Below, one piece after another: positions 10,776 to 53,591 of a stretch of 64,000 bases of DNA. The translations under genes were made by a program, and so were the position numbers. The stretch's first letter is position 1, and each line of letters begins with the position of its first letter. The stretch comes from Candidatus Sulfuritelmatomonas gaucii (GTDB lineage: Bacteria; Acidobacteriota; Terriglobia; Terriglobales; Acidobacteriaceae): NCBI GenBank assembly GCA_900290245.1, contig OKRB01000013.1:1-64000 (forward strand). Reading direction: 5' to 3'. The notes beneath the pieces are model-generated. The model ran no database searches, was not told the DNA's origin, and saw only the letters and a list, made by a program, of their open reading frames with translations.

Positions 10776-11669
10776 TTATGAATTCCCGTGACGCAAGCGG
10801 AATCGCCCGGCGGGAACACCACGAACCTGCGTTTGCAGCGCAAAGACACTCCCCGAGTATTGCTCGGCCGATCGCGCGCTTGTGATGTAGAGAGTCTTAA
10901 GGTCGTCACCGCCAAATGCGCACGTCGTCGGGCGCGACACCGGCAATTTCACGGTCTGCTCGACGTGGCCATTGGGCGCGATTCGGAGCAGGCAGCCGGC
11001 GCCGGGCCGTGCGTTCCAGAGAAATCCTTCCGCATCCATCGCTGAGCCGTCGGGCGCTCCATGTTCATAACCGTTCAGAAGCGGCCGTTCCTCTGAGATT
11101 GCCCCGGTCGCTTCATCATACGCAAACTGGCTGATGGTGTTTGCCCGCGTATCTCCGAAATAAAATCGCTTGTGGTCGGGACTCCAAGCCACTGTGTTGG
11201 AAAGACGGACGCCTTTCTTCCATTCCATGGCGGCACCATCGGGATCGATTCGATAGAGAACGCCGTCTGAAAAAGTGACATCCAGTTCCTCTCCATGCGG
11301 ACCAACGTTATTGCGCATGGTGCCCGCCCAAAGCGAGCCCCGCGGATCGACGCCGGCGTCATTGAATCGCATTTCAGGCGCAGTGGGCAGCTTGTAGATC
11401 GTGTCAACTCGCGGATGATCGCGGGGCGACCAAAGTCCTATCTTAGACGCGAGGACGAGGAGGAGCAGTTCGCTGTCTTCTGTAAGGCTCACTGATGTTA
11501 CTGGCTCATCGAACATCCAGGTTCTTATCGACGACGTGGCCGGCGTGAACTGATGGACCAGAAACCGATTGATGTCGGCCCAGTACAAAGCAGACTGTTC
11601 CGGATGCCATACGGCGCCTTCTCCGCAGATGTCCCCGGCTGGAACCGCACATCGAATTTCATTTGCCAT
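10776..11669 (-). CDS. SMP-30/gluconolactonase family sugar lactonase
   Basis: A six-bladed beta-propeller of 297 residues, the SMP-30/GNL/LRE family, that would hydrolyse sugar lactones to aldonates in the cytosol. The metal ligands typical of the family are visible: the Glu in DICGEGAVWHP (about residue 17), the Asn in MRFNDAGVDPRGSLWAGTM, the Asn in GVRLSNTVAWSPD and the Asp in GAPDGSAMDAEGFLW. No signal peptide. It is 41 bases downstream of the SSS transporter on the same strand, so uptake and lactone opening of one sugar may be co-expressed. The product of an upstream dehydrogenase (none is directly adjacent) would be the substrate. Confidence 0.85.
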   Translation of the reverse strand: MANEIRCAVPAGDICGEGAVWHPEQSALYWADINRFLVHQFTPATSSIRTWMFDEPVTSVSLTEDSELLLLVLASKIGLWSPRDHPRVDTIYKLPTAPEMRFNDAGVDPRGSLWAGTMRNNVGPHGEELDVTFSDGVLYRIDPDGAAMEWKKGVRLSNTVAWSPDHKRFYFGDTRANTISQFAYDEATGAISEERPLLNGYEHGAPDGSAMDAEGFLWNARPGAGCLLRIAPNGHVEQTVKLPVSRPTTCAFGGDDLKTLYITSARSAEQYSGSVFALQTQVRGVPAGRFRLRHGNS

Positions 11670-17897: not shown

Positions 17898-20800
17898 CTA
17901 CCAGTAGAATTTCGCCGCGAATTGGATCTGCCGTGCGATGTCTGCTAAGACGATCGACCCTGCGTTACTGGTGCCTGGCGTTGTATTCGTCGACGCTCCG
18001 AGGTTGACATGGTTGAAAGTGTTGAAGAACTCCGCGCGGAATTGCATGCGGACGGAATCGCCCAGGTTTGTCCACTTCGAAAGGGAGATGTCCGTGTCGT
18101 AGTAGGGAGGCGTGCGCAAGTTTGAGAAATACCGCGGCGCGTTGCCGAAGGTGCCGGCTGAAGCCGCCACGAATGCGCAGGGGTTGTACCAGTGCGTGAT
18201 GTTCCTGAGCGTAGTGGGCCCAATGCAGCCTGAGTTCGCCGCGAAGTTACCTGGCACGTTGGGATTGCCGACCACATTTGCATGCTGCCCGCCGCCGTAC
18301 ACGCTCGCCGAATTTAGATTTGCACTGATTCCCATCGGCAAACCTTCTCTGAAGGAAGTGTCTCCGGCAACCTGCCATCCGCCGAACGCCGAGTCAGTTA
18401 TCTTGCCCCAGTTTTGGCCGATCAACTTTCCTCTGCCCACGGGAAGCGCATAGATGTAGCTGACGACCGCGCCATTTGGCTGATCTGCGTAAGCCACGGA
18501 TTTTTCCTGGGCAAGGTTATAGTTATTACGAACAACCTCGCCGTAGAACACTTCAAATGCCGAGCCGCCGATGGTATCGTCCAACGCCTTGCCGCGCGTG
18601 TAAGTGCCCATGATGGTGAGGTCATTGCTCAGGCGATGCTGGTATTTCACATTGAGCGCGTCGTAGAACGAAAAGGCAGTATTGTCTTTTGCGTTTGTAA
18701 CGCTATCGCAGAATTCCGGCATCGGCAACATAAGCTGAAAGGCGGGAACCGTTGCGCCGGCCAAACCGCAGCCGCTGCCGGTAACCGGGCCCAAGCCGAA
18801 GAATGGGTTGGTCTTAGCAGCGGTAAGCGCGCTACTGCCCAGCGCAAGATCCGCGGGAGGAAGCTGATTGATGTTCAAACCGCTGATCACAAATTTGAGA
18901 GCGTGACTTCCCACATAGTCGGCTTCAATCATGTCCCGCGGCGCGAGCGAGTATTGCAGGCCGAACATCCACTGTTCGACATAAGACGAGGGCCTTTTGA
19001 AAACGCTCGTGGCAAAGGATTGTCCCACGTTCGTCAGACCGCCTTGTGAACTTCCGATCACTGGAAGAATCCCTTGCGGAAACGGATTGCTCAGAGTCGA
19101 CGAAGGATTGAGCCCTCCGTTCAAAGAAGAGACAAGGCTCGTTGTTTGCGCGTATCCAGGCATGGTCGGGTCTCCTGCCCACTCATCCGGGAAGAACAGT
19201 GCGCCGCCTCCGCGCACATCAAGTTTCTTGGTCGCCATGTACGAGAATCCAAAGCGCGGCGAGAAATTGGTGTAGGAGTTTTGATAGAAGTACCTGTTTC
19301 CCGGAGTGTTGTAAACGAGTTGTCCATAATACGGGCCGCCGCTGGCAAACGAACTGATCGGATTGACCTGGTTTGGCATAAAGTACGCCTGCTTGTTATG
19401 CCTCTCCGTGGGAGCGAGCTGGATATCGTAGCGCAACCCCAGGTTCAGCGTCAGGTTCTTCGTTGCCTTCCAGTCATCCTGCAAATACCACCCGAAGTAA
19501 TGTTTGCTGAGCGCGGGATATTGATAAATGCCCGTTGTTCCGCTTGCTGCCGCGCCCATCAGGAATGAGCCGAAGGCATTTCCCGTCCCAGTCGTTGCGT
19601 GATTCGGATCCGGGCCGGCTGAAAATGCCGAATTGAAGCCAAACGTGGTATGGGCCGGGGCGCCACCGAGAACCATGCTCAGGATGCCCATGTATCCGAA
19701 GGTGAATGTGTGGTTCCCCTTCACCTTGACGACATCTGCGCTGATGGTTCCCTCATCAAGCGCAGTCGCCTCGGTTGTCGCGTTTCCTAAGGGAAGAAAC
19801 CCGCTGATATTCACGAGTGGGAAGTACGGCGAGACCGAGTCGAGCACAGCGGGCAATCCGAGTGTCGACGATTTAAACCCGGCTCCCTGGCCGACATTGC
19901 CCTCGACCCAGCGGTTATAGCCAAAGTTCACGCTCAATGTGAGCGTCGGGCTCAGTACCTGGCTGTAGCCTGAAGCCACGCTATAGCGGTTGTTCGGATT
20001 GGTCTGCCCTGGACCGGCAGGATTCGACGCTCCAAAAAGTGGCGCCGACTGCACCTTCGCTTCCCATTTCCTGGAGTACCGTGCATAGAACCGCGAATTA
20101 TCCGTCAGGATCTGGTCGATGCGAATATTCATCTCGTTCGAGGTGGTTGGAACGCTCGCATCGGCGAAAAAGTTGCTGGATAAGCCGGAACCCGTTGTGC
20201 CCGGGAAGTAGGTCGCCATTTTCTTGGCAACCGGGTCCTCCAAACCGGCCAAAGCGGCAATGTTGTTGCCGGGTACGGGATCGCGAATCTGTACCGTTTG
20301 CCCGGCTGTGCTATTTGCCGTGTTGCATGTAGAAACGACCGACCGTGTGCTGAACGGATTGTAGATCTGTCCCGTATAAATCGGGCGGCAAAGTGCATCT
20401 GTCCCAGGCAATTGCGCACCCAGAAACGCGGACAAATCTCCACCAACCATCCCAGATGTCGGCACCGTACCGGGCAACTGCGAGACAGCGCCCAGGCGCA
20501 GCCCCTCATACCCACCGAAGAAAAACGTCTTGTTCGTCCTGTGCATGAGGCCCGGAATATACAACGGGCCACCCTCGGTCGCTCCAAACTGATTCATGCG
20601 CGTCGGCGTTTTCGCCTGATTGTTGATCTTGTTGAAGATAAGGGTGGCGTCCAGCGCATAATTCCGCAAGAACTCGTACATGTCGCCGTGGAATTGCTCC
20701 GTGCCGCCCTTGGTCACCACACTGATGACGTTGCCTTGACTCATCGCATATTGCGCGGAAAAGGTGTTCGTCGACATTTTGAATTCCTGCACCGTATCGA

Positions 20801-21488
20801 TCGACGGCACATACATGACGCCGTTATAGGCCATCATGCCATTCCACGAACCATCCAGCAGGAAGGAGTTGGCTGCGAATAACTGTCCGCCCACCGCCAT
20901 CAGCGAATAATCCTGGTCAGCGGTGTCAACCGTGTTGCCAAGAGCGCCCTGATCGAACCATCTGTTCTGGGAGTCGAGGAAAACCAGGGCCAGTGAGCTG
21001 CGGAAGTTCAGCGGCATCTCAAGCATCTGCTTTCCCGAGACTTCATCGCCCAAATCGGGAGTATCCGTTGTAAGCAATGGCGCCTCAGTTGAAACCACCA
21101 CCTGCGACGACGCATTTCCCATAGCGAGTGTCGGGTTCAGCTCCACCGTCTGATCAACCGCAAGAACAATACCACGCTGCTCAAATGGGGCAAATCCGGC
21201 GACCGCGATCTTCAGGGTGTAGGTGGCCGGCGGCAGCAAGCTGAACGAATAGGTTCCTGTCGAAGTTGTCGTGAACGTGCGCGTAATTCCCTCTTCTTGA
21301 CTCGCAAGCGTAAGCGTGGCCCCAGTCACGCGCGCGCCTTGTGGGTCAGTCACGATTCCGGATATAGATGCGGTTGAGGCCAAGTTCTGGCCCAAAAGCG
21401 GGGTAGTGATCTGAGCGAGAAGCAACGTTACGACGCCGGAGATCAGCGCCACATGCAGAATCGGTCGGGAAGGGAAGAATCTGCTCAC
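17898..21488 (-). CDS. TonB-dependent receptor, Oar-like with carboxypeptidase-regulatory domain
   Basis: A 1,196-residue outer-membrane receptor of the kind common in Acidobacteria. After a signal/anchor (PILHVALISGVVTLLLAQ) comes a carboxypeptidase-regulatory-like beta-sandwich (SISGIVTDPQGARVTGATLTL ... TYSFSLLPPATYTLKIAVAGF), then a plug domain (VSTEAPLLTTDTPDLGDEVSGKQMLEMPLNFRSSL, VISVVTKGGTEQFHGDMYEFLRNYALDA) and a long barrel ending in FAAKFYW, with the C-terminal aromatic residue typical of outer-membrane proteins. It would bring glycan fragments or other large solutes into the periplasm using TonB energy. The GTG at 21488 has a perfect AGGAGG seven bases ahead; the track start at 21521 is too early. 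It is transcribed away from the GntR regulator, which may control it. Confidence 0.9.
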   Translation of the reverse strand: MSRFFPSRPILHVALISGVVTLLLAQITTPLLGQNLASTASISGIVTDPQGARVTGATLTLASQEEGITRTFTTTSTGTYSFSLLPPATYTLKIAVAGFAPFEQRGIVLAVDQTVELNPTLAMGNASSQVVVSTEAPLLTTDTPDLGDEVSGKQMLEMPLNFRSSLALVFLDSQNRWFDQGALGNTVDTADQDYSLMAVGGQLFAANSFLLDGSWNGMMAYNGVMYVPSIDTVQEFKMSTNTFSAQYAMSQGNVISVVTKGGTEQFHGDMYEFLRNYALDATLIFNKINNQAKTPTRMNQFGATEGGPLYIPGLMHRTNKTFFFGGYEGLRLGAVSQLPGTVPTSGMVGGDLSAFLGAQLPGTDALCRPIYTGQIYNPFSTRSVVSTCNTANSTAGQTVQIRDPVPGNNIAALAGLEDPVAKKMATYFPGTTGSGLSSNFFADASVPTTSNEMNIRIDQILTDNSRFYARYSRKWEAKVQSAPLFGASNPAGPGQTNPNNRYSVASGYSQVLSPTLTLSVNFGYNRWVEGNVGQGAGFKSSTLGLPAVLDSVSPYFPLVNISGFLPLGNATTEATALDEGTISADVVKVKGNHTFTFGYMGILSMVLGGAPAHTTFGFNSAFSAGPDPNHATTGTGNAFGSFLMGAAASGTTGIYQYPALSKHYFGWYLQDDWKATKNLTLNLGLRYDIQLAPTERHNKQAYFMPNQVNPISSFASGGPYYGQLVYNTPGNRYFYQNSYTNFSPRFGFSYMATKKLDVRGGGALFFPDEWAGDPTMPGYAQTTSLVSSLNGGLNPSSTLSNPFPQGILPVIGSSQGGLTNVGQSFATSVFKRPSSYVEQWMFGLQYSLAPRDMIEADYVGSHALKFVISGLNINQLPPADLALGSSALTAAKTNPFFGLGPVTGSGCGLAGATVPAFQLMLPMPEFCDSVTNAKDNTAFSFYDALNVKYQHRLSNDLTIMGTYTRGKALDDTIGGSAFEVFYGEVVRNNYNLAQEKSVAYADQPNGAVVSYIYALPVGRGKLIGQNWGKITDSAFGGWQVAGDTSFREGLPMGISANLNSASVYGGGQHANVVGNPNVPGNFAANSGCIGPTTLRNITHWYNPCAFVAASAGTFGNAPRYFSNLRTPPYYDTDISLSKWTNLGDSVRMQFRAEFFNTFNHVNLGASTNTTPGTSNAGSIVLADIARQIQFAAKFYW

Positions 21489-21780
21489 GATACGGCCTCC
21501 TGAATCTGAATCGCATGACAAGTGCCCGAATCCGTCACAACTGACATTGCAGTTTTCAGAAGCCTAGCTAGAGATGAACAAAGAGGTCTATGAAATTCTC
21601 TGCTTTTTTTGTTGTTTTTTCAAGTAGTTTGTTTTGAGGTAGTTGATGAGATAATTCGGTGTGAAATGGGTCATTTTGCATGGGGTTGCGCACCTGTATT
21701 TCTTGAGTTTGATCACTGTTTGACGCCTCTAGTTGATCTGCGTTCATCAAATATTGACATCGCAAAAGAAACAGGGTTGA
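21489..21780. promoter_or_regulatory. Divergent promoter region between the TonB-receptor and GntR genes
   Basis: A 292-base AT-rich intergenic region that separates two divergently transcribed genes and must hold both promoters. AT-rich tracts (ttctctgcttttttt, caaatattgacatcgc) are visible but I cannot define boxes with confidence. An operator for the adjacent GntR/FCD protein would be expected here. The 21568-21765 ORF is probably not real. Confidence 0.5.
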
Positions 21781-22554
21781 ATGGCTAGGATGGCAAACGG
21801 GAATGCACCAGACGCACGGAATGGGTTCTCCCCTTCTTTGTGGAACAAAGCCTATTACCGGATTCGCGAGCGAATCTTACGCGGGGAACTGAGTCCGGGA
21901 GAGGCATTGTCGGCCCGCCGTCTGGCAGAGGAATTCGGCATGAGCCTGTTGCCGATCTCCCAGGCCTTTCGGCAACTGGAAAACGACCGCTTGCTGGAAA
22001 GCCGGCCGCGTGCCGGAACTCGCGTTCGCATCCCCCAAGCTGACGAGATTCGTGGGCGCTGTATTGTCCGCGAAGCGCTTGAGGCTCAGTCTGCTCGCCT
22101 TTGCTCCTTGAATGCCACGATGAAGGAGCGCGTGGAGCTAATGCGCCTGGCTGAGCAGCTTGACACACTTTATGGCCGGTTCGGACAAGGCGGAGATCCG
22201 GAGATGCAGTACGCAGTTCACACGCTTCATTTCGAACTTCACATGCGCATCGCTGAGTACGGCCGCTGCCAGGAGCTGAAGGAAGCGATTGAAATGAACC
22301 AGGTGCTCATCTACAACTGGTTCTTCGACGTTGCGACGAATCGCCGCACACTGCCGCCGGGATTTCATGTCAAGTTGCTCGAAGTCGTAACTGGATCGGA
22401 TCCGATCGCCGCCGACGAGGCGATGCGTGAACATGTGCAGTACGGCGTTACGGAATCGCTTAATCAGGCTGTGCCCGCAATTTCGACCGATTGGAGGCAG
22501 AGACGATCACAGTCCAACGAGAAAGAAGCTGGTCAGGGACCTGAGAAGCTATAG
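21781..22554 (+). CDS. GntR-family transcriptional regulator (FCD/FadR subfamily)
   Basis: A 257-residue regulator. The N-terminal winged helix is visible as YYRIRERILRGELSPGEALSARRLAEEFGMSLLPISQAFRQLENDRLLESRPRAGTRVRIP (about residues 23-85). The rest is an all-alpha FCD ligand-binding domain (REALEAQSARLCSLNA...; HTLHFELHMRIAEYG...). Such proteins bind small carboxylates or sugar acids and repress nearby catabolic genes. Its divergent position against the TonB receptor makes the receptor cluster the most likely target. The start is the ATG at 21781 or the one at codon 4; the AGGGTTG before it is a weak ribosome binding site. The tail after residue 235 is low in complexity. Confidence 0.85.
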   Translation: MARMANGNAPDARNGFSPSLWNKAYYRIRERILRGELSPGEALSARRLAEEFGMSLLPISQAFRQLENDRLLESRPRAGTRVRIPQADEIRGRCIVREALEAQSARLCSLNATMKERVELMRLAEQLDTLYGRFGQGGDPEMQYAVHTLHFELHMRIAEYGRCQELKEAIEMNQVLIYNWFFDVATNRRTLPPGFHVKLLEVVTGSDPIAADEAMREHVQYGVTESLNQAVPAISTDWRQRRSQSNEKEAGQGPEKL

Positions 22555-22589: not shown

Positions 22590-24836
22590 TCATCCCGCCT
22601 TTCGCTTTTCAAAGATCACCGCGGCCAGTTCAAATGGTTCGAGGGGTATTGAACCTTTGAGAATGTTTTCCTTCTTCGCTGCGATCTTCTCCTCGTTACC
22701 CCCGTTTGAAGTGATCAAGGAGTACGACTCCGTCTCAACACCGTAACGCGACATATCGAAATCAAATTGGAAGGTCGAGCCATCCTCGGTCAGGTTGGCC
22801 GCCATGATTGCCACGTGCTGTTCTGTTTCATAGACCTTTGCGAAAGCGCCGGACGCCATCAGACCGATGTCGTCCTCAAAGGATCCATTGACCCAAAACT
22901 CTTCCGTCTTCTTTCTGAATTCTGCAAGGCGCCGGATGTGCGCTGCGAACACGGGAAAGTCGCTGAGGCTTTTGCCGTTCTCCAGCCCACCGGCGATGAT
23001 GGCCAACCGAAGACCGAGAATCACGTACTTGTTCGCCAGTCCCATATCGACGGGCACTGCGGACGTATTTATCACCCATGGCAGCGTGTATTGCAGGACT
23101 TCGGGATTCGGAGGCATCCGCCAGACCCACCCCGAATCGAGATGCTGGCTCGCCAGGATTTCCCAACCTTCCCCAATCAGGATTGCCTCCGGGTTGTCTG
23201 CCTTCATTCCCGCGCGTAGTTCCTCAGCGAAACCTGGAGTAGCAATGGAGGGAGCACTCACGTCCGCGTGATTGTGCCTCGCGCTGAAACACAAGTTGCC
23301 CTCGACCACCTGGTCGTAAAACATCATGGAGTAGCCGCCCTGTTGCAAGACCCTCCGCACGTTGCGTACGGCAAATTCGCAATACCCGTTGACCGCGCTG
23401 CACATCACGTAATCCAGTTGGCCAAATGATTGCTGACGGTTGCTCCATCGCGCCGCGCCAAAATGCTGATGATCCCACGACTCCCAGATGGGATCGCCCG
23501 ATTCCCTGCGAATGGCCCACTCTTCCGCGAGGTTGTGCAATTCCGGTGTCAGCGTGGCCTTGTTCCACAAGCGCTGCGAGAAGATGATACCTGTGCTTAC
23601 ACCCAAATCCCGGGCCTTCTGGTTCGCGGCCTGGAGCCTGGGCGGTCCACCCCACTGCGCCGCGAACTGCCCCAGCCGCGGCGGATCAACAGAGAGATCG
23701 TCGGGTTCCAGAACTTTGGGATAGTAATCGCCAAAGTTCCACATCACCAGGTGATGGATGCCGTACTTGCGAATGTCCTCGGCCAACTCCGCGATCTGCA
23801 TGAAGTCACGATGCGTGAAAAAGCTGTTGAAGGTCCCGAGGGCACGCCGGAATTCCAGCGGCGTATCGGCCTTGCGATACCAGCCTTCAAGGCTTGCGCG
23901 ATACTTAGCCGCGGCGGCGTGCCAGTCGCCCTGGTGCAGGCTCACAACCAGCTCGGGCGAGCGCCACGATTTGCCCGGTCCGATGTATGATTCGAACGCC
24001 CATGCAAACGAGAGAATCGGATGCGTCACGGCGCCGTAATCCTGAATCATGAGCCTGTGCTGAATTCCAGTCCGAACCATGCTTGCAAAGTACAGCCCTT
24101 CCGATTTGCCGCCGTAATTCATCCACGGCATGGCGAGGCTGTAGCCATCGGGCCACTTGGGAATGTCGAGAAGAAATGGATATTCTTCCCAGTTGGCATC
24201 TGCATTGAAATGATTGCGAAGATCGGCTCCGCGATAGATCATGCTCGGCGCTACAAATGTGTCAGTGGCTCGATCCTCGATCTCGCCTACGCCCGAAATC
24301 CAAGGAAAGAAAACCTCCCTTATTTCGAACCTTGACCGGTTGTCGATCTGCAACTGAAGCTTTGCTTCGTCGGACCCGTCGTCGAGGCGAATTGTGTAGA
24401 TCGCTGCGATCGGGAAGTTTCCAGCTTCTGATTTCAGCTCAGGATAGCTGATCCTCAGGATCTGGCCTTTTGCATCGCGTTCGCGCGTAATTGCGCAATC
24501 GCTCTGCAGCCAGGAATCAAACGAGTTTGCGGAGTAATCGGCGTTGAAGCCGGTGATCAGCCCGGGGATAGGCACATTCAGCCGGAAGACCTTCGCCCAT
24601 TTTGTCGTAGCGATGTAATCCCGGCCGCTTCGTTTGTTGCGCAGTCCGATGATGTCTCCGCTGCGCGAGTCCACCGAAATAGAGACGAATTCATTCTCAA
24701 TCGTTGCCGCGTGTGCAAGGTCTTGCTCGCCATTCTGCGCAGCAAAAGCCGGCAACGCCGCTCCTGAAGCAAACAGCGATGCGCCTCCGAGAGCGGTGCT
24801 CCGGATGAATTGGCGCCGGCTGACGTTCCGAACCAT
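22590..24836 (-). CDS. Tat-exported glycoside hydrolase-like protein (DUF6259-type)
   Basis: About 748 residues with a twin-arginine signal (VSRRQFIRSTALGGASLFASGAALPAFA), so exported folded. The N-terminal half is a beta-sandwich typical of glycosidase accessory domains (ENEFVSISVDSRSGDIIGLRNKRSGRDYIATT), and the second half has barrel-like segments: LVMWNFGDYYPKV, VSTGIIFSQRLWNKA, GQLDYVMCSAVNGYCEFAVRNVRRVLQQGGYSMMFYDQVVEG and NPEAILIGEGWEI. The FYDQ and GEGWE pieces are candidate catalytic-acid strands, but I cannot assign the residues. I match it by memory to DUF6259-like proteins, whose activity is not firmly known. The ATG at 24836 follows GAGGGA. The next gene upstream on the minus strand is the esterase. 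A role in degrading plant polysaccharide is inferred. Confidence 0.6.
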   Translation of the reverse strand: MVRNVSRRQFIRSTALGGASLFASGAALPAFAAQNGEQDLAHAATIENEFVSISVDSRSGDIIGLRNKRSGRDYIATTKWAKVFRLNVPIPGLITGFNADYSANSFDSWLQSDCAITRERDAKGQILRISYPELKSEAGNFPIAAIYTIRLDDGSDEAKLQLQIDNRSRFEIREVFFPWISGVGEIEDRATDTFVAPSMIYRGADLRNHFNADANWEEYPFLLDIPKWPDGYSLAMPWMNYGGKSEGLYFASMVRTGIQHRLMIQDYGAVTHPILSFAWAFESYIGPGKSWRSPELVVSLHQGDWHAAAAKYRASLEGWYRKADTPLEFRRALGTFNSFFTHRDFMQIAELAEDIRKYGIHHLVMWNFGDYYPKVLEPDDLSVDPPRLGQFAAQWGGPPRLQAANQKARDLGVSTGIIFSQRLWNKATLTPELHNLAEEWAIRRESGDPIWESWDHQHFGAARWSNRQQSFGQLDYVMCSAVNGYCEFAVRNVRRVLQQGGYSMMFYDQVVEGNLCFSARHNHADVSAPSIATPGFAEELRAGMKADNPEAILIGEGWEILASQHLDSGWVWRMPPNPEVLQYTLPWVINTSAVPVDMGLANKYVILGLRLAIIAGGLENGKSLSDFPVFAAHIRRLAEFRKKTEEFWVNGSFEDDIGLMASGAFAKVYETEQHVAIMAANLTEDGSTFQFDFDMSRYGVETESYSLITSNGGNEEKIAAKKENILKGSIPLEPFELAAVIFEKRKAG

Positions 24837-24929
24837 AAAGACCAATCCCTCGATAGCCCGTTCCTCTGCTGCCCGGGCCGGCGTTCGGAGTTGTGGCCTC
24901 AGGTGCGTGCTTGCGCCAATTAATCGGAG

Positions 24930-26931: not shown

Positions 26932-27630
26932 CTACCCGCCAGTTTCACCATATGCGTGAACCTTTTGGCAAATGAGCCGAAGCTTTGACTCAACATCACC
27001 CGACGCAGTCTTGAATGATTCAGCGTCGATTGTGAGCGGAGCGCCGAGCACAACCAACGGTGCGCCGTATTCGGGAGTACGAACTGCTTGCTCAACAGAG
27101 AGTCCGCCCACGGCCTGGACGGGTAACTTTACCGCGGCGGCAATCTCCCGCAGTTGATCAAGAGGACTCGGACACGGAAGGCCCGCCGCCGCAAGCCCAC
27201 GGCGCTCGTCGTAGCCGATGTGATGAATCACGAAGTCGCAGCCGAAATTTTCGAGCCGCTTGGCTGCTGCAACCTTGTCGCGGGCGCCCAGATTGTCGCC
27301 CATTACTTTTACGCCAAAGTCTCTTCCAGCGCGCACTACCATCTTGATGGTTTCAGGGTGCGCACGCTCCATGACCACAACGTGCGTAGCGCCAGCTCGG
27401 GCCATCAATTCCGCTTCAAGCCAGCCGCCGTCCATCGTTTTCAGGTCGGCAACGATGGGTGTTTCGGGAAACTCCGCGCGCAGTGCTTTCACGCCGTTCA
27501 TTCCTTCGGCGATGATGAGCGGTGTCCCTGCTTCCAGCCAATCCACCCCGGCACGCATTGCCATACGCGCGGTATCGAGAGCCTCGGGAATCGTGGTTAC
27601 GTCGAGCGAGATTTGGACGACGGTCTTCAT
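26932..27630 (-). CDS. 3-hexulose-6-phosphate synthase-like enzyme (OMP decarboxylase superfamily)
   Basis: A 232-residue TIM-barrel protein of the OMPDC superfamily, in the branch with 3-hexulose-6-phosphate synthase and 3-keto-L-gulonate-6-phosphate decarboxylase. Strand 1 has the conserved Asp (VVQISLDV), strand 2 the Glu in DWLEAGTPLIIAEGM, strand 3 the Asp-x-Lys-x-x-Asp core VADLKTMDGG, and HHIGYDER stands where decarboxylases have HRSRD-type residues. The phosphate-side motif is VGGLS...LGAPLT, lacking the Arg seen in KGPDC. This pattern favours HPS-like aldol chemistry, but the partner isomerase (6-phospho-3-hexuloisomerase) is not next to it, so formaldehyde fixation is not implied. 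The ATG overlaps the stop of the upstream isomerase by 4 bases (ATGA), showing coupled translation. Last gene of a four-gene operon. Confidence 0.8.
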   Translation of the reverse strand: MKTVVQISLDVTTIPEALDTARMAMRAGVDWLEAGTPLIIAEGMNGVKALRAEFPETPIVADLKTMDGGWLEAELMARAGATHVVVMERAHPETIKMVVRAGRDFGVKVMGDNLGARDKVAAAKRLENFGCDFVIHHIGYDERRGLAAAGLPCPSPLDQLREIAAAVKLPVQAVGGLSVEQAVRTPEYGAPLVVLGAPLTIDAESFKTASGDVESKLRLICQKVHAYGETGG

Positions 27631-28526
27631 TGTGAATTTGCCTGAGCACCAAAGTGGAGATCAATTTTGTTCTTGAGAAAGCAAACGGATTCGCGCAGAT
27701 CGTTCATCCCGTTCATCCCGTCTTCAATCGAGATCCAGGAGTCAAATCCAACGGAGCGCAATGTCGAGAAGATCCGGTCGTAATCATTCAGCCCTTTGCC
27801 GATGACGCCATGCGCCAGCCGGTTTGCATAGCCGAGTGAGGACTCCTCTCGGCGCAGGTCTTCGATGGTTCCGGCCTTCAAGTAACGATCGCTTGCATGC
27901 ATCGTGACGACCCGTTCTCTCACGCGCTCCAGCAGCACAAGCGGATCTTCGCCTGCGAGGATTGCATTCGATGGATCGTAGTTGACACCGAACCACGGCG
28001 ACTCAATCTGATCCACAATCTCGACGAAGACGTCCATTTTCTGCGCGAACTCGGGATACTCCCAGTAATTGTCCTTGTAGTGGTTTTCCATGGTGAGGAT
28101 CACACCGTGTTCCTCGGCAAAAGGCAATAGAGATTTCAGTACGCGCACTACCTGCGCCACTCCATCTTTGAGTCCGAGTCCAGGCCGTCGCTGGCCTGAC
28201 AGTACGCGGCAATAGCGGCCTCCAAAAAACGCGGTCATCCGGATCATTTGCTTTTCCCGTTCCACTTCCCTTTCGAGAAGCAGCGGGTCCGGCTGGGTGA
28301 AATCGGGCGAACAGCACAGCATCGGCATCGCGAGACCGTGCTGCTCGAGGGCGGCTTTCACCTCATTCAAAAACGCTTCATCGTCACGCAAGAATCCGGA
28401 ATAGAATTCCAGGCCTTCAACACCGAGCGTCGCCGCAAGCTCGATCCATTGCACAACGGTCATGGTGCGATGAATGCACAGCTCGTCCATGAAGCATTTA
28501 GGGAATACCGCCAAGCGCGGCTTCAC
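27627..28526 (-). CDS. Sugar phosphate isomerase/epimerase (xylose-isomerase-like TIM barrel)
   Basis: About 299 residues from the GTG at 28526. A xylose-isomerase-like TIM barrel (AP endonuclease 2 superfamily): VKPRLAVFPKCFMDELCIHRTMTVVQWIELAATLGVEGLEFYSGF, HGVILTMENHYKDNYWEYPEFAQ, WFGVNYDPSNAILAGEDP, MHASDRYLK and SWISIEDGMNGMNDL. The ENH, DPSN, HASD and IED segments carry the metal-binding Glu, Asp, His and Glu expected for family members. It probably isomerises or epimerises a keto sugar, or acts as a metal-dependent decarboxylase. The first 59 residues of the track ORF are an artefact: the GTG overlaps the TGA of the upstream SDR as GTGA, and the stop overlaps the next ATG as ATGA. The specific substrate is unknown. 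Confidence 0.8.
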   Translation of the reverse strand: MKPRLAVFPKCFMDELCIHRTMTVVQWIELAATLGVEGLEFYSGFLRDDEAFLNEVKAALEQHGLAMPMLCCSPDFTQPDPLLLEREVEREKQMIRMTAFFGGRYCRVLSGQRRPGLGLKDGVAQVVRVLKSLLPFAEEHGVILTMENHYKDNYWEYPEFAQKMDVFVEIVDQIESPWFGVNYDPSNAILAGEDPLVLLERVRERVVTMHASDRYLKAGTIEDLRREESSLGYANRLAHGVIGKGLNDYDRIFSTLRSVGFDSWISIEDGMNGMNDLRESVCFLKNKIDLHFGAQANSQ

Positions 28527-29332
28527 GGCTCGACTGCCTTGGGCGGATTGCGCCCGATCATCGGATACTGACTCAAGTCGAGAACTGTGCCATTGACCAG
28601 CGCCGCCTCGTCGGAGAGAAAATAAACGGCGGCCCACGCAACGTCTTCGGGAGATAGCAGGCGACCCGCGGGAGCAAACACCTTTGGGAGCCTCGTCGGC
28701 CAATCTTCAGGCAGGCCTTCTTTCATTTTCAATGCGTACTCGTTCGGCGTCAGCGTCCAGCCCACATTCAAGAGGTTCACGCGGATTCCTTCTGCTCCGT
28801 GGGCGTCCGCAACATTGCGCGTGAGTGTCATCAGCGCGCCTTTGCATGTGGAGTAAATGCACTGGGACCGCTCGCCGCAATAAGCATTCACTGAGCCGAT
28901 ATTGAGGATCCGTCCGCCACCCTGCCTGCGAAAGTGCGGCAACACAGAACGAATCAGGAAGAATGGCGCCTTCAGATTGACGGCAATCGTGCGGTCGAAT
29001 GCCTCGAAATCCGTCTCTTCGATGGTGCCGCGCGTCATGAGGGCCGCATTGTTCACAAGGCCATCGATTCTTCCGAAGCGAGCCACGGTTTTGTCAATTA
29101 GCGCTGCGGGAACTTCGGGATCTTCGAGCGCACCGACAACAAAGGCAGCATTGCTTCCAATCTCTTCCGCCAGCTTTTCTGCTTGATCGCGGCGGCGCCC
29201 ATGAATCATCACCTGCGCGCCTTCACGCGCAAAGATGCGCACCATGCCTTCGCCGATCCCAGTGGTTGACCCGGTCACCAGGATGACCTTGTCCTTGAGG
29301 CGTGTGCTCGCGGGCAATTTCGATTCGCTCAT
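28523..29332 (-). CDS. Short-chain dehydrogenase/reductase (SDR)
   Basis: A classical SDR of 269 residues: Rossmann motif VILVTGSTTGIGEGM (TGxxxGxG), NNAALM (NNAG-like) and the active site SVNAYCGERSQCIYSTCKGA, with Ser, Tyr-x-x-x-Lys. The basic segment IHGRRRDQAEKL after strand 2 suggests NADP preference. It would oxidise or reduce a sugar or sugar-acid hydroxyl in the cytosol. It overlaps the start of the isomerase by 4 bases (GTGA), and its own ATG overlaps the stop of the upstream alcohol dehydrogenase as ATGA. The tight order ADH-SDR-isomerase-lyase indicates one pathway. Confidence 0.85.
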   Translation of the reverse strand: MSESKLPASTRLKDKVILVTGSTTGIGEGMVRIFAREGAQVMIHGRRRDQAEKLAEEIGSNAAFVVGALEDPEVPAALIDKTVARFGRIDGLVNNAALMTRGTIEETDFEAFDRTIAVNLKAPFFLIRSVLPHFRRQGGGRILNIGSVNAYCGERSQCIYSTCKGALMTLTRNVADAHGAEGIRVNLLNVGWTLTPNEYALKMKEGLPEDWPTRLPKVFAPAGRLLSPEDVAWAAVYFLSDEAALVNGTVLDLSQYPMIGRNPPKAVEP

Positions 29333-30363
29333 GGCCTCAACACACCTTTCACGATCGAGCCCGAATGCATGGCTTCAAACGACACGCGCCAGTCATCGAG
29401 AGGAGCCACACGGTTGAGGATAGGACGGAGATCGATTTTACCTGACGTCAGTAACACGAGCACGCTTTCCCACATCGACCAGTTATGCGAAAAGCTGCCC
29501 TGCAAGGTAACGGCTTTCTGCACGAGCTGGTCAAGCGAGAAGTTCAGTGGTTGCGGCCCCCACCCCACCTTTGTAATCTGCCCTGCCGGCCGCACAATGT
29601 CGAGGGCCAGCTTGAGCGACGCCGACACACCCGCAGCGTCGATAACGAGGTCGACTCCATAGCCATCGCCGTGGCCTCTCAACCATTCCGGAACATTCTC
29701 TCCTTGCGCTCCGAGAACTGTGTCAGCGCCGATCTGCCCCGCAACTTCGAGCCGCTTTGCGTCGGCAGCCGTTCCAATTACAATCAGGTGCCCGGCCCCG
29801 GACAGCTTTGCCATAGCTGCGCACAGCAGTCCGATTGGGCCTGGTCCGATGACCGCAACTGTATCGCCCGGGCGCACGCGTGAGTTCGCGCAAACCGCGT
29901 TATACGCCACGCAACACGGCTCTGTGAGAGCAGCGCTCTCGAGTGGCAGTGAAGCCGGAACATGATGAAGGCATCGCGATGGCACTTTCACATATGAAGC
30001 CATCGCGCCGTCCACTCCATACCCGAAGCCGAGGCGCCCCGGTTCAAGGTTGTAGAGGCCGCGGCGAATAAGCGCCGAATCCCTGGGCAGCACCGCCGCA
30101 GTTTCGCTGACCACGCGATCGCCTTCTTTGAATTCGGAAACGCGTTTCCCTGCCTTTGCAATGACGCCTGCGAATTCATGACCCAGGACCACGGGATAAT
30201 TCACTTTCCAGCTTTGGCTGCCGTGATACTGATGCAGGTCACTTCCGCAGATCCCGACAGAATCCACGCTTAACAAGACGTCCTCTTCGCCAATCTCCGG
30301 AACGGGTAGGTCCCGAAGCTCCACCGAGCCGGGATCTTTCGCGAAGTTCACCAAACCGACCAT
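29329..30363 (-). CDS. Medium-chain zinc-type alcohol/polyol dehydrogenase lacking the structural zinc cysteines
   Basis: About 344 residues of the medium-chain dehydrogenase family (threonine/sorbitol/galactitol-type). The catalytic-zinc side chains are present: Cys in SVGICGSDLHQYHG, His-Glu in VVLGHEFAGVI, and the GEGDRV-like loop EFKEGDRVVSE. The cofactor fold has AVIGPGPIGLLCAAMAKLSGAGHLIVIG. However, the structural-zinc lobe, normally CxxCxxCxxxxxxxC, reads VLPRDSALIRRGLYNLEPGRLGFG and contains no cysteine. The start at 30363 (MVGLVNFAKDPGSVELRD) aligns with family N termini; a GTG at 30378 with GGAG before it is an alternative. The track start at 30453 adds 30 atypical residues. First gene of the four-gene operon, ending in a 4-base overlap (ATGA) with the SDR. 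Confidence 0.8.
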   Translation of the reverse strand: MVGLVNFAKDPGSVELRDLPVPEIGEEDVLLSVDSVGICGSDLHQYHGSQSWKVNYPVVLGHEFAGVIAKAGKRVSEFKEGDRVVSETAAVLPRDSALIRRGLYNLEPGRLGFGYGVDGAMASYVKVPSRCLHHVPASLPLESAALTEPCCVAYNAVCANSRVRPGDTVAVIGPGPIGLLCAAMAKLSGAGHLIVIGTAADAKRLEVAGQIGADTVLGAQGENVPEWLRGHGDGYGVDLVIDAAGVSASLKLALDIVRPAGQITKVGWGPQPLNFSLDQLVQKAVTLQGSFSHNWSMWESVLVLLTSGKIDLRPILNRVAPLDDWRVSFEAMHSGSIVKGVLRP

Positions 30364-36641: not shown

Positions 36642-37772
36642 CTAGCGCTGCAGCCCCGCAGAAGCGCTTGCCGATGAAGTGTGTGATGCTCCGTCGATCA
36701 CCGGACGAATGTGACTGGCGCGTCCCTGAATTGCGCCTGGCTGGGAACGAACGCGACGGCGATAGGCTGCCGGAGTCATGCCGGCAATCTTGCGAAACAC
36801 CGTGCCGAAATAGCTCTGATCGCAGAAGCCTACTTGCTGGCTGATGCTCACCATGGACTCATCTGATTGCGCGAGGAGCCGCTGAGCCTGCTCGATGCGG
36901 AAGTGATTCAGGTAGGCGACAAACGACAGGCCGGTCACTTGCTTGAAGAAGTTCATGAAATACGATTCACTCATTCCGCACATGCGCGCGGCCTGGCGAA
37001 CCTGGACCGAGCTACCCAGGTTGTCACCGATGAATCGGAAGAGGGGCCTGAGCCGGTCGAGCGCACGCTCCTGGCGCCGAAACGTCTCGATGGTGCCCGC
37101 GTAGGCGGCGTACTGGTTCACGAGCAGCATGAGCACCATCTTCAAGTACGTTTTTACGGCGAGCCGTGCGCGCGGCGTCGACGCGGGTAGTTCCGCCTGA
37201 ATGCTTAGCATCAGGTCCAGCACCTGGCGGGGAATTCCTGCTTTGGCCGGCACAATGTGGGGGAACTCGGCGTCCTGCAACAGGAAGGGCGTCAGATATC
37301 CTGCGCTATCGTCCGCTCCATCGCAGCAGATAAACTCGGGTTCAAAGAAGAGGGCTGCGATCGTCAACGGAGATTCCGATTGGCACTCAATCCGGTGATA
37401 GAGCGTGCTGCCGATTACGGCCAGATCGCCTTCATGGAAGGGCAACAGCCGATCCTGGATGTGACACACGCCATAGCCGGAGCAGAGATACAGAATCTCA
37501 AAGTAACCGTGACGGTTCATCCGTACGCGCTGGCGGTCATGCGTCGTCATAAACAGCACGTCGACCGGACACGATTTACTGAACGGCCAGATGTGCACCC
37601 CCTCAGCGTTGATCTGGGGCTCGACCAGGCTGAAGGTATCCTTCAATGGTTTGCGCGGCGTTTGCACGCGGGGAGATTCCCTGCTCGAACCAGGCAACAG
37701 CCGTAGCCAATTCGAGACTTTGCGGTTCTTCAAGTCAGTGTTCGATTCGGAAGACTTCTTCGACCTCGCCAT
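36642..37772 (-). CDS. AraC-family transcriptional regulator
   Basis: A 376-residue regulator with an N-terminal cupin (HGYFEILYLCSGYGVCHIQDRLLPFHEGDLAVIGSTLYHRIE, about residues 88-132) that probably senses a small molecule, and a C-terminal double helix-turn-helix: VRQAARMCGMSESYFMNFFKQVTGLSFVAYLNHFRIEQAQRLL and VSISQQVGFCDQSYFGTVFRKIAGMTPAAYRRR. It overlaps the end of the PLP-enzyme gene on the same strand by 38 bases, so it lies at the 3' end of the operon (lactonase, DhaK, DhaL, ABM, PLP enzyme) and probably controls that operon. The first 60 residues are low in complexity and the start may be internal. Confidence 0.9.
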   Translation of the reverse strand: MARSKKSSESNTDLKNRKVSNWLRLLPGSSRESPRVQTPRKPLKDTFSLVEPQINAEGVHIWPFSKSCPVDVLFMTTHDRQRVRMNRHGYFEILYLCSGYGVCHIQDRLLPFHEGDLAVIGSTLYHRIECQSESPLTIAALFFEPEFICCDGADDSAGYLTPFLLQDAEFPHIVPAKAGIPRQVLDLMLSIQAELPASTPRARLAVKTYLKMVLMLLVNQYAAYAGTIETFRRQERALDRLRPLFRFIGDNLGSSVQVRQAARMCGMSESYFMNFFKQVTGLSFVAYLNHFRIEQAQRLLAQSDESMVSISQQVGFCDQSYFGTVFRKIAGMTPAAYRRRVRSQPGAIQGRASHIRPVIDGASHTSSASASAGLQR

Positions 37773-39160: not shown

Positions 39161-39174
39161 AGCTCTCGCTTTCG

Positions 39175-39651
39175 TCAACTGAATTGAGGTGCGATCTGTC
39201 TCGCCGCTCCTTCTTGTGCAAGGGCGGAGCCGAATGCGGCGAAAAGCAGGGCGATGGAGGCCGCTCCGGGGTCAATATGGCCCAGGCTTCGCTCGCCAAG
39301 AGACTTGGCGCGCCCATAACGAGCAATCATTTGCTTTGTCGCATCCGCGCCTCGCTCCGCGGCCGCCGCGGCCGAATTCATAGCAATTTCCGCTGTTTGG
39401 CCTGATGAAGCGGCCTGCTCAAATGCTTCGACTGCTGGAAAGAGTGCGTCCATCATCGTCTTGTCACCCTGCGTGGCCTTGGTATGGCGCAGAACTGCCC
39501 GCAGCCCAGCATCAAAGCTTTTGGCGAGGCACAAGCAGTCCATTTCTTCTCCGATCTCCACCTCTCCCAGGGCGGCCACAAAGGTTCCCAGAATTGCGCT
39601 GGATGCTCCTCCATCCGCGTCCATAGCGCTCCATCCGGCTTCTTTCAGCAT
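39175..39651 (-). CDS. DhaL domain, C-terminal part (split dihydroxyacetone kinase L subunit)
   Basis: This frame holds the second part of an ADP-binding DhaL domain: EAGWSAMDADGGASSAILGTFVAALG (GGASG-like loop), AFDAGLRAVLRHTKATQGDKTMMDALFPAVEAFE (nucleotide-binding helix with GDKTMMDAL), ERGADATKQMIARYGRAKSLGERSLGHIDPGAAS (R-x-x-Y-x-G-R-A motif). Its first codons overlap the stop of the preceding frame as ATGCTGA. Together with the 66-residue preceding part it makes a normal-length DhaL of about 211-220 residues. So this is either a gene broken by a frameshift or a split, translationally coupled pair. Confidence 0.7.
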   Translation of the reverse strand: MLKEAGWSAMDADGGASSAILGTFVAALGEVEIGEEMDCLCLAKSFDAGLRAVLRHTKATQGDKTMMDALFPAVEAFEQAASSGQTAEIAMNSAAAAAERGADATKQMIARYGRAKSLGERSLGHIDPGAASIALLFAAFGSALAQEGAARQIAPQFS

Positions 39652-39845
39652 CGCGCTGCACTTTTCGAGTCGGCATCATCCATCGCCTGTTCCAGTCTTT
39701 CCATGAAGCGAACCATCGTGGCGCCGTGATCGCCATCGCCGCCGACGGAATCAAGCTGCGACAACATGGTGCTGCGATCCCGGATCAGTTGTGCCGCTGC
39801 GGAAAACATCTGCTTTAGCACAGTCTTTGAAGGCGAATTCTTCAT
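39645..39845 (-). CDS. DhaL domain, N-terminal part (split from the following frame)
   Basis: A 66-residue frame: MKNSPSKTVLKQMFSAAAQLIRDRSTMLSQLDSVGGDGDHGATMVRFMERLEQAMDD. The GDGDHGATM motif carries the Asp residues that bind the magnesium-ATP in DhaL proteins. It begins 1 base inside the end of dhaK (ATGA overlap) and ends after SKSAARC, where the next frame goes on with the rest of the domain. Alone it lacks most of the nucleotide fold. See the following entry for the two explanations. Confidence 0.7.
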   Translation of the reverse strand: MKNSPSKTVLKQMFSAAAQLIRDRSTMLSQLDSVGGDGDHGATMVRFMERLEQAMDDADSKSAARC

Positions 39846-40828
39846 GGTTTTGCGAAATACGGCGCATCTGCAGTCGCATCCCACAACTGGAGCAATTGTT
39901 CGTCCATACGCGCGATGGTCATTTGAAATCCTGCCTGTTCCTGCGTCGTGATGAATTCCCCGATCAAACTGCGCGCCAGTTTGATCCTATTCGCCTCAAG
40001 CAGCTGGGCGACGCGTCGAAAGACGATGAAGAGTTCCATATGCGTTGTCGCTCCAGCGCCGTTTAGCAGAACCAGTACTTGTTCACCAGGAGCAACAGCC
40101 AGATCCTCGAGCAACCTTGTGAGCATGATCTCCGCCGTTTCGTCCGCGGTCTTCAGCGGCATTCGGCCCGTGCCGGCCTCCCCGTGCTGGCCCATGCCGA
40201 TCTCCATCTCGTCTTCAGCCATTTCAAAGATCGGATGGCCGGTTGCGGGATGAGTCGCGGTTCGCACAGCGACGGCAAGTGTGCGCATATTCCGCTGCAT
40301 TCGCTCCGCTATTTCGCAACATGTCTCAAGCGATTCTCCTTGTTCGGCCGCCGCGCCGGCGACTTTATACACCAGCACGCAACCAGCCAGCCCGCGGCGA
40401 TCGCCCGGCGGACCAGAGATATCCTCTTCCGTGAGCACCATCTTTACCGGCAGGGACTCGCGAAGAGTGGACTCCATTACGATATTCGCGGTGAGCACAT
40501 CGCCGGCGTGATTCAAAACAATGAGCAGCGCACTCGAGCCGTGTGAGCACGCAGCGCGAATTGCATCGAGGCATTTTGGCGCACCAGGTGCCGCAAATAT
40601 CTCACCCGCGACGCTCACATCGAGCATGCCGGTCCCGACAAAGCCGCTCAGCCCAGGCTCGTGCCCGCTGCCGCCCAACGTGATGAGTCTTACCTTACCC
40701 TCAGCCTTGGGCTTCGCGCGGACAACCGTGCTTGGCCCGGACAAGCGCACTTTGTCTCGGTACGCGACCGTAAATCCTTCCAGCAGCTCTCGAACAAGTC
40801 GCCGAGGATCATTCAAGAATTTCTTCAT
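39842..40828 (-). CDS. Dihydroxyacetone kinase-like K subunit (DhaK)
   Basis: About 328 residues of the DhaK family, which binds dihydroxyacetone or related ketoses such as erythrulose covalently and receives phosphate from ATP bound to DhaL. Seen are MKKFLNDPRRLVRELLEGF, the GGSGHEPGLSGFVGTGMLDVSVAGEIFAAP loop and EMEIGMGQHGEAGTGRM with the hemiaminal-forming His (consensus GMGIHGEPG). No phosphotransferase DhaM gene lies nearby, so ATP is the likely donor. The start is the ATG at 40828 or a GTG at 40834, which has a better-placed GGAGGAG. The track ORF start at 40900 overlaps the lactonase gene and is rejected. Part of the lactonase-DhaK-DhaL-ABM-PLP-AraC operon, so the ketose may be something other than dihydroxyacetone. 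Confidence 0.85.
   Translation of the reverse strand: MKKFLNDPRRLVRELLEGFTVAYRDKVRLSGPSTVVRAKPKAEGKVRLITLGGSGHEPGLSGFVGTGMLDVSVAGEIFAAPGAPKCLDAIRAACSHGSSALLIVLNHAGDVLTANIVMESTLRESLPVKMVLTEEDISGPPGDRRGLAGCVLVYKVAGAAAEQGESLETCCEIAERMQRNMRTLAVAVRTATHPATGHPIFEMAEDEMEIGMGQHGEAGTGRMPLKTADETAEIMLTRLLEDLAVAPGEQVLVLLNGAGATTHMELFIVFRRVAQLLEANRIKLARSLIGEFITTQEQAGFQMTIARMDEQLLQLWDATADAPYFAKP

Positions 40829-47270: not shown

Positions 47271-53591
<6,321 letters not shown>

What the first reader, a model, noticed from the sequence alone, without database searches (positions are those of the whole stretch)
26932..30363. Four-gene ATGA-coupled operon with an HPS-like OMP decarboxylase-superfamily enzyme but no kinase or phospho-hexuloisomerase
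The genes ADH, SDR, TIM-barrel isomerase and HPS-like enzyme overlap by 4 bases at all three junctions (ATGA, GTGA, ATGA). The HPS-like protein keeps the Asp, Glu and Asp-Lys-Asp core of the superfamily, with HPS-type rather than decarboxylase-type flanking residues. A formaldehyde-fixing or ascorbate pathway would need a 6-phospho-3-hexuloisomerase or a kinase/epimerase set; neither is visible beside it. Two dehydrogenases and an isomerase feeding a carbon-carbon lyase suggests a so far unnamed route for a sugar or sugar acid. The chemistry is inferred, not shown.
Basis: partly seen in the sequence, partly recalled or inferred. Interest (0 to 1): 0.75.

Follow-up and report, generated by a model that had tools for sequence, protein, structure and literature searches.

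The report
Unnamed conserved sugar-acid breakdown operon
Four overlapping genes, found together in soil and water bacteria of at least five phyla, encode what looks like an unstudied pathway that oxidises a sugar acid, removes carbon dioxide with a distant cousin of a formaldehyde-fixing enzyme, and passes the remaining sugar on to central metabolism.

Summary
Four minus-strand genes (30363-26932) for a zinc alcohol dehydrogenase, an SDR, a xylose-isomerase-type TIM barrel and an HPS-like protein overlap by ATGA, GTGA and ATGA. Orthologous modules lie in Acidobacteriota, Verrucomicrobiota, Planctomycetota, Armatimonadota and Bacteroidota. The lyase stays 74-85% identical across phyla. Of 64 loci with at least 5 kb on both sides, 46 have both ADH and TIM within 6 kb. 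The lyase forms its own clade (support 100/100) apart from HxlA and UlaD/SgbH, and it misses every curated HPS and KGPDC cut-off. The isomerase HxlB is absent at cut-off from all 31 module genomes searched, so the RuMP cycle is excluded. Best reading (inferred): the ADH makes a 3-keto sugar acid, the lyase decarboxylates it to a ketose, the TIM barrel epimerises the ketose, and a kinase encoded elsewhere phosphorylates it. That would be an unphosphorylated parallel of the UlaD/SgbH ascorbate route. Outside Bacteroidota, 27 of 29 module genomes carry xylulokinase, against 14 of 30 same-phylum controls. Scattered neighbours (GntP permease, nickel hexonate epimerase, SMP-30 lactonase, FGGY/PfkB/DAK kinases) point to sugar acids. 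The substrate, and whether it is phosphorylated, remain open.

The parts
29329..30363 (-). Zinc-dependent medium-chain dehydrogenase, closest to L-threonine 3-dehydrogenase and scyllo-inosose 3-dehydrogenase (IolM) but far below their cut-offs; proposed C3 dehydrogenase of a sugar acid
28523..29332 (-). Short-chain dehydrogenase; N119, Y160 and K164 invariant and S147 conserved; just passes the broad subfamily NF004847 (241.6 vs 240 bits); the least conserved of the four and absent from some loci
27627..28526 (-). Xylose-isomerase-like TIM barrel (AP_endonuc_2) with a conserved E147/D184/H210/E268 metal set; proposed ketose epimerase or isomerase
26932..27630 (-). HPS-like OMP decarboxylase (HUMPS) family lyase; own clade apart from HxlA and UlaD/SgbH; proposed 3-keto sugar-acid decarboxylase
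39175..39651 (-). Dak2-domain protein (DhaL-like); possible ketose kinase subunit; not part of the operon
39842..40828 (-). Dak1-domain protein (DhaK-like, 307 bits, cut-off 406); possible ketose kinase subunit; not part of the operon
10776..11669 (-). SMP-30/gluconolactonase-like protein; possible sugar lactonase of the same regulon (inferred)
21781..22554 (+). GntR/FCD regulator; possible regulator of the region (inferred); weak GntR-family matches also lie directly upstream of the lyase in L182 and L186

Best explanation
The operon encodes a catabolic module for a sugar acid (aldonate). The ADH oxidises the C3 hydroxyl of the aldonate to a 3-keto acid. The HPS-like protein, using the Mg2+/Asp-x-Lys-Asp site of its superfamily, decarboxylates it through a 1,2-enediolate to a ketose one carbon shorter. 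The metal-dependent TIM-barrel enzyme epimerises or isomerises that ketose. A kinase encoded elsewhere (xylulokinase, or a DAK or PfkB kinase) phosphorylates it for the pentose phosphate pathway. The SDR either oxidises the aldose at C1, with an SMP-30 or cyclase-family lactonase following, or adjusts another carbon. The logic is that of E. coli sgbH-sgbU and ulaD-ulaE (dehydrogenase, 3-keto-acid decarboxylase, TIM-barrel 3-epimerase), but without the phosphate. The most specific candidate is 3-keto-D-gluconate -> D-ribulose + CO2, then D-xylulose; I put that at only about 0.2. Shown: genes, overlaps, conservation, clade, absence of HxlB, conserved catalytic core. Inferred: every reaction and the substrate.
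For: Superfamily core conserved (D10, E33, D62, K64, D67, D112, H137). The predicted fold matches HPS and KGPDC best. The ADH is nearest to TDH and IolM for all 22 members scanned; TDH makes a beta-keto acid by oxidising C3 (own knowledge). The TIM barrel keeps the metal ligands of ketose 3-epimerases, and UlaE and tagatose/allulose/L-ribulose 3-epimerases are among its fold neighbours. E. coli pairs decarboxylase with a TIM-barrel epimerase in the same way. ADH and TIM accompany the lyase in 46 of 64 well-flanked loci, the SDR in 39. Sugar-acid neighbours: a nickel hexonate epimerase 3 bp after the lyase in L002 (573 vs 500 bits; its group is hypothesised to act on a hexonate in PMC7583248); a GntP permease and UxuA-like gene in L039; SMP-30 genes near the lyase in L019, L074, L081 and L145. 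Kinase supply: the own genome has a xylulokinase (532 vs 380 bits). Outside Bacteroidota 27 of 29 module genomes have it against 14 of 30 controls; at 4-9 Mb 25 of 25 against 12 of 23, Fisher p about 6e-5. The two exceptions (G307 and G310, loci L036 and L047) carry a PfkB kinase gene beside the module.
Against: No substrate or reaction is shown. The loops that bind phosphate in HPS and KGPDC (GG after strand 7, G after strand 8) are kept, so a phosphorylated substrate is not excluded. The sugar-acid neighbours each occur in one or a few loci. The nickel epimerase is present in 14 of 58 module genomes and adjacent in only one of them. The FGGY pentulose kinase beside the module in L142 shows no general co-occurrence: 3 of 40 module against 3 of 40 control genomes. 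Only 1 of 11 Bacteroidota module genomes has a xylulokinase over the cut-off. The controls were not phylogenetically matched. Nine of 64 well-flanked loci have the lyase without any of the three partners.
Confidence: 0.45

Rival explanations
1. The same decarboxylase/epimerase logic on a phosphorylated substrate: a 3-keto-hexonate-6-phosphate (KGPDC-like) whose kinase is encoded elsewhere.
For: Phosphate-binding loop glycines are retained. All characterised HPS and KGPDC relatives use phosphorylated substrates (own knowledge). PfkB kinases are in or beside the module in several loci, inside the operon in L003.
Against: A kinase lies within 6 kb in only 3 of 64 well-flanked loci. KGPDC cut-offs are not met. 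The Arg that follows the strand-8 Gly in UlaD/SgbH (GR) is Ala-Pro in this family.
Confidence: 0.2
2. The module is the cytoplasmic sink of the 3-keto-glycoside pathway: 3-keto-glucose released by periplasmic GMC dehydrogenases and DUF1080 hydrolases is oxidised at C1 by the SDR or ADH, opened by a lactonase and decarboxylated by the HPS-like enzyme to D-ribulose.
For: GMC oxidoreductases, some with gluconate-2-dehydrogenase subunit 3, plus DUF1080 or Gfo/Idh genes lie near the module in several Bacteroidota and Acidobacteriota loci (L057, L058, L066, L124, L126, L127, L142, L143). The fate of 3-ketogalactose is stated to be unknown in PMC9007349.
Against: These families are common in these phyla and are absent near most loci (GMC in 5 of 64, DUF1080 in 3 of 64), including the window.
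Confidence: 0.15
3. In this genome the module serves plant cell-wall pentose use, for example D-apiose or another pentose via a pentonate, giving a tetrulose phosphorylated by the DAK kinase.
For: The window holds two apiosidase-like GH140 genes, SMP-30 lactonase-like genes and split Dak1/Dak2 genes. Dak1/Dak2 also lie near the module in L062.
Against: No homologue of the window's GH140 genes was found in the other loci examined. Dak genes recur in one other locus only. PF13204 covers more than apiosidases (own knowledge).
Confidence: 0.1
4. A formaldehyde-handling enzyme: HPS running forward (RuMP fixation) or in reverse (hexulose-6-phosphate cleavage supplying pentose phosphate).
For: HPS families are the nearest curated relatives (172 and 137 bits), D112 is HPS-type, and the best structure match is annotated HPS.
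Against: TIGR03128 cut-off 200 bits is not met in any of 30 module genomes. HxlB is over its cut-off in none of 31. The clade is separate. Annotated hxlA genes examined on plasmids sit beside hxlB or an SIS-domain gene.
Confidence: 0.05

Closest known systems
3-Keto-L-gulonate-6-phosphate decarboxylase modules UlaD-UlaE and SgbH-SgbU (E. coli ascorbate / 2,3-diketogulonate pathways)
   Same: Same OMPDC-superfamily fold and Asp/Glu/Asp-x-Lys-Asp core; lyase encoded next to an AP_endonuc_2 TIM-barrel epimerase; dehydrogenase upstream in sgb (yiaK)
   Different: 24-25% identity in the lyase; separate clade; Asp not Glu at 112, Tyr not Arg at 139, Val not Thr at 169; no PTS, no in-operon kinase in most loci, no 4-epimerase; zinc ADH plus SDR instead of YiaK
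3-Hexulose-6-phosphate synthase (HxlA, RuMP pathway)
   Same: Nearest curated families by score; Asp112 and the HxGYD motif as in some HxlA; same fold
   Different: 29-33% identity; below the family cut-off; no HxlB in the genome; family-specific N113, R143/R144, V174, insertion and C-terminal extension; not a formaldehyde context
L-threonine 3-dehydrogenase and scyllo-inosose 3-dehydrogenase IolM
   Same: Nearest curated families of the ADH; both oxidise a secondary alcohol to a ketone
   Different: Scores about half of the equivalog cut-offs; different operon
Thermotoga-type myo-inositol route (IolM, IolO) and IolE
   Same: ADH resembles IolM; TIM barrel weakly resembles IolE and IolO
   Different: All far below cut-offs; no C-C lyase of this family belongs to that route (own knowledge)
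D-apionate pathways with 3-oxo-isoapionate decarboxylases (own knowledge; the primary paper is not in the held library)
   Same: An oxidised branched sugar acid is decarboxylated to a tetrulose that a kinase phosphorylates; GH140 and DAK genes are in this window
   Different: As recalled, the known decarboxylases there are not HPS-like; GH140 homologues are not found at the other loci

Membership tests
HxlA, 3-hexulose-6-phosphate synthase (TIGR03128) | Score over the curated cut-off of 200 bits | tested here: not met
   136.8 bits; 0 of 30 module genomes over the cut-off
HxlA, 3-hexulose-6-phosphate synthase (TIGR03128) | Partner 6-phospho-3-hexuloisomerase (HxlB) in the genome | tested here: not met
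   0 of 31 module genomes over the TIGR03127 cut-off
HxlA, 3-hexulose-6-phosphate synthase (TIGR03128) | Groups with HxlA in a tree | tested here: not met
   Own clade 100/100 on a branch of 4.85 changes per site; HxlA rows fall outside (long branches, so deep order unsure)
HxlA, 3-hexulose-6-phosphate synthase (TIGR03128) | Condenses formaldehyde with ribulose-5-phosphate | not testable with these tools
   Needs an enzyme assay
KGPDC (UlaD/SgbH) | Score over the curated cut-offs (250 and 294 bits) | tested here: not met
   74.2 and 55.5 bits
KGPDC (UlaD/SgbH) | Glu112, Arg139, Thr169 (UlaD numbering) | tested here: not met
   D112, Y140, V174 in the aligned columns
OMPDC superfamily / HUMPS (PF00215) | Pfam gathering score and TIM-barrel fold with HPS/KGPDC as best structural matches | tested here: met
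   69.8 vs 27 bits; pLDDT 89.2, best matches 3f4w, 9lj9, 3ajx, then KGPDC
OMPDC superfamily / HUMPS (PF00215) | Catalytic Asp, Glu, Asp-x-Lys-x-x-Asp | tested here: met
   D10, E33, D62, K64, D67 invariant in 34 family members and shared with UlaD and HxlA
L-threonine 3-dehydrogenase (ADH gene) | Score over the curated cut-offs (458 and 380 bits) | tested here: not met
   210 and 209 bits
myo-Inosose-2 dehydratase IolE (TIM gene) | Score over the cut-off of 290 bits | tested here: not met
   38 bits
Ketose 3-epimerase-like AP_endonuc_2 enzymes (TIM gene) | Family score plus conserved Glu/Asp/His/Glu metal set | tested here: met
   133.2 vs 31.1 bits; E147, D184, E268 invariant and H210 nearly invariant; activity not tested

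The most novel reading that the evidence does not exclude
A third functional branch of the HPS/KGPDC group works on unphosphorylated 3-keto sugar acids and, with a zinc dehydrogenase and a TIM-barrel epimerase, forms an uncharacterised oxidative decarboxylation route from aldonates to pentuloses, used across at least five phyla. It would be a phosphate-free counterpart of 6-phosphogluconate dehydrogenase and of the ascorbate pathway.
Probability: 0.35. Interest if true: 0.8.

Novelty: new variant of a known kind. Interest (0 to 1): 0.6.

Why it matters
Annotation pipelines tend to label such lyases hxlA, which would wrongly predict formaldehyde fixation in many uncultured soil and freshwater bacteria. 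If the reading is right, it gives a testable carbon route from sugar acids (or 3-keto sugars) to pentose phosphate in Acidobacteriota, Planctomycetota, Verrucomicrobiota and Bacteroidota. It would also bear on what happens to 3-keto sugars, an open point in the cited literature (PMC9007349), and on how the OMPDC superfamily explores new substrates.

Tried and rejected
RuMP/formaldehyde fixation: rejected (no HxlB, below the HPS cut-off, separate clade). KGPDC/ascorbate membership: rejected. D-ribulokinase (TIGR01315) as the general partner kinase, suggested by L142: no co-occurrence, 3 of 40 against 3 of 40. Apiose as the general substrate: GH140 homologues were not found near other modules. 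Nickel hexonate epimerase as a constant partner: adjacent in one locus only, present in 14 of 58 genomes. Literature searches found no description of this cluster (the held library lacks most subscription papers). Promoter and terminator scan: nothing above chance. Profile search of the ADH against the PDB at 1e-60 gave nothing. My first ORF clustering picked wrong-frame ORFs in high-GC loci and was replaced by a codon-usage gene caller; neighbour counts rest on that caller and may miss genes.
Full report
OBSERVATION. The four minus-strand genes are exactly as described. ADH is 30363-29329, SDR 29332-28523, TIM barrel 28526-27627 (GTG start) and the HPS-like gene 27630-26932, with overlaps ATGA, GTGA and ATGA. 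Pfam assigns ADH_N/ADH_zinc_N, adh_short, AP_endonuc_2 and OMPdecase/HUMPS. No promoter-like site was found, and terminator-like sites did not exceed chance.

CONSERVATION. A search of one genome per species gave 262 relatives; the best 80 loci come mostly from Acidobacteriota, Verrucomicrobiota, Planctomycetota, Armatimonadota and Bacteroidota, with single records named Chloroflexi and Actinomycetes. The lyase is 74-84% identical to the window's in the 33 other members of the family alignment, 75-85% in the locus list. ADH is 58-80%, TIM barrel 47-79% and SDR 43-70% identical. Two gene orders occur: ADH-SDR-TIM-HPS in acidobacteria, and HPS-ADH-SDR-TIM elsewhere. Of 64 loci with at least 5 kb on both sides, 51 have TIM, 49 ADH, 39 SDR, 46 both ADH and TIM, 37 all three, and 55 at least one. 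The module is patchy within phyla. Lyase relatives occur in 8 of 297 Acidobacteriota genomes at E 1e-20 (two of these only weak HPS-like matches), 16 of 294 in the Planctomycetota sample, 9 of 346 in the Bacteroidota sample and 13 of 289 in the Verrucomicrobiota sample, one of them weak. The own genome has one copy.

THE LYASE. Nearest curated families are bifunctional hexulose-6-phosphate synthase/ribonuclease regulator (172 bits, cut-off 593) and HxlA (137 bits, cut-off 200). KGPDC models score 74 and 56 bits against 250 and 294. The predicted structure (pLDDT 89) matches solved HPS (3f4w, 9lj9, 3ajx), then KGPDC. In alignment with E. coli UlaD and SgbH and five plasmid-encoded HxlA-type proteins, D10, E33, D62, K64, D67 and H137 are shared. 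UlaD Glu112 is Asp, as in HxlA; UlaD Arg139 is Tyr, as in some HxlA; UlaD Thr169 (Ala in HxlA) is Val. N113, R143, R144 and P198 are invariant in the family, which also has a 7-residue insertion after the DERRG motif and a C-terminal extension. In a maximum-likelihood tree the family forms its own clade (100/100, branch 4.85), separate from HxlA and from UlaD/SgbH. The tool warns that long branches meet, so the deep order is unsure, though the clade itself is not in doubt. The glycines of the two phosphate-binding loops are kept, so the sequence does not decide whether the substrate carries phosphate.

THE PARTNERS. The ADH is closest to L-threonine 3-dehydrogenase and IolM in all 22 members scanned, at about half the cut-offs. 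The TIM barrel matches IolE in all 23 members and IolO in 22, only weakly. It keeps E147, D184, H210 and E268, the metal-ligand pattern of ketose epimerases. Its fold neighbours include the isomerase Art22, a 2-hydroxy-3-keto-glucal hydratase, tagatose/allulose/L-ribulose 3-epimerases and UlaE. The SDR has the usual catalytic residues and just passes one broad subfamily model. In E. coli, ulaD-ulaE and sgbH-sgbU pair a 3-keto-acid decarboxylase with a TIM-barrel epimerase, which is the same pairing as here.

WHAT IS MISSING OR ELSEWHERE. HxlB is over its cut-off in none of 31 module genomes, and no family member in 30 genomes passes the HxlA cut-off. A kinase lies within 6 kb in only 3 of 64 well-flanked loci. 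PfkB kinases, far below all curated kinase cut-offs, occur beside or in the module in Opitutae, L003, L023 and L040. L062 has FGGY plus DAK genes, and L142 has an FGGY pentulose kinase over the cut-off. The pentulose-kinase family does not co-occur generally (3 of 40 against 3 of 40). Xylulokinase does: 28 of 40 module genomes against 14 of 40 controls; outside Bacteroidota 27 of 29 against 14 of 30; within 4-9 Mb 25 of 25 against 12 of 23. The two exceptions outside Bacteroidota, G307 (L036) and G310 (L047), have the PfkB gene near the module. The control genomes were taken in listed order and not matched by phylogeny, so this is support, not proof. The own genome's xylulokinase passes its cut-off and lies on the same contig, about 125 kb away.

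SUBSTRATE CLUES. Directly downstream of the lyase in L002 is a nickel-dependent putative hexonate epimerase (573 vs 500 bits). Its group is hypothesised to epimerise a hexonate in PMC7583248. L039 carries a GntP permease and a UxuA-like gene downstream. SMP-30 genes lie near the module in L019, L074, L081 and L145, and PF04199 cyclase-family hydrolases near it in several Opitutae loci, L003, L127 and L141. GMC/subunit-3/DUF1080 genes of the 3-keto-glycoside type lie near it in several Bacteroidota and Acidobacteriota loci. The window itself is a polysaccharide-utilisation region: TonB receptor-like protein (17898-21521, by sequence inspection), GntR, GH31, GH29, two GH140-like, GH39, esterase, SMP-30, SSS transporter, Dak1/Dak2. 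No single clue recurs often enough to fix the substrate.

CONCLUSION. I commit to a 3-keto sugar-acid decarboxylation module, most likely on an unphosphorylated aldonate, giving a ketose that is epimerised and then phosphorylated by an outside kinase (confidence 0.45 for the mechanism class; about 0.2 for 3-keto-D-gluconate specifically). Established: gene structure, cross-phylum conservation, separate clade, conserved catalytic core, absence of the RuMP partner. Inferred: each reaction, the order of steps, the substrate, the role of the SDR.

Noticed in passing
window 39175-40828 (-): A dihydroxyacetone-kinase-like pair on separate genes: Dak2 (39175-39651) and Dak1 (39842-40828), with an ABM-domain gene at 38849-39178 and a 3-hydroxy-D-aspartate-aldolase-like gene (225 bits, cut-off 690) at 37735-38793; possible tetrulose or ketose kinase.
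   Followed up: partly
window 13526-15073 (-) and 41942-43402 (+): Two apiosidase-like (PF13204, GH140-type) genes with collagen-bind_2 domains in one polysaccharide-utilisation region, together with GH31, GH29, GH39, an esterase and SMP-30 genes.
   Followed up: partly
G000 contig C118:32830-34047 (locus L154): The own genome encodes a nickel-dependent putative hexonate epimerase (NF052594, 631 bits), a family hypothesised but not shown to act on a hexonate.
   Followed up: no
L086, L087, L109-L112: Diverged lyase homologues (52-64% identical) branching at the base of the clade; L138 and L139 lack the three partner genes nearby, while L140 and L141 keep them in another order (TIM-SDR-HPS-ADH).
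   Followed up: partly
L090, L091, L092 (G275, G291, G235): A second HPS-like protein in three acidobacterial genomes of one family; it groups with UlaD/SgbH in the tree but scores 162-175 bits on the HxlA model, just under its cut-off of 200; a possible further uncharacterised group.
   Followed up: no
L034, L043, L046, L059, L061, L063, L003, L016: A second AP_endonuc_2 TIM-barrel gene (TIM2) is found in module loci of several Planctomycetota, inserted next to the SDR; weakly like fructoselysine 3-epimerase, IolO and hydroxypyruvate isomerase.
   Followed up: partly
window 22590-24845 (-): A 751-aa secreted-looking protein with only a weak DUF6259 match; an unassigned probable glycoside hydrolase in the same region.
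   Followed up: no
L049:2074-2961: A nucleoside-hydrolase-like gene just upstream of the lyase in a Verrucomicrobiota locus, a hint of ribose-related substrates at that locus.
   Followed up: no
window 47211-53591 (+): A very long open frame of 2126 aa just beyond the carbohydrate region; not examined.
   Followed up: no
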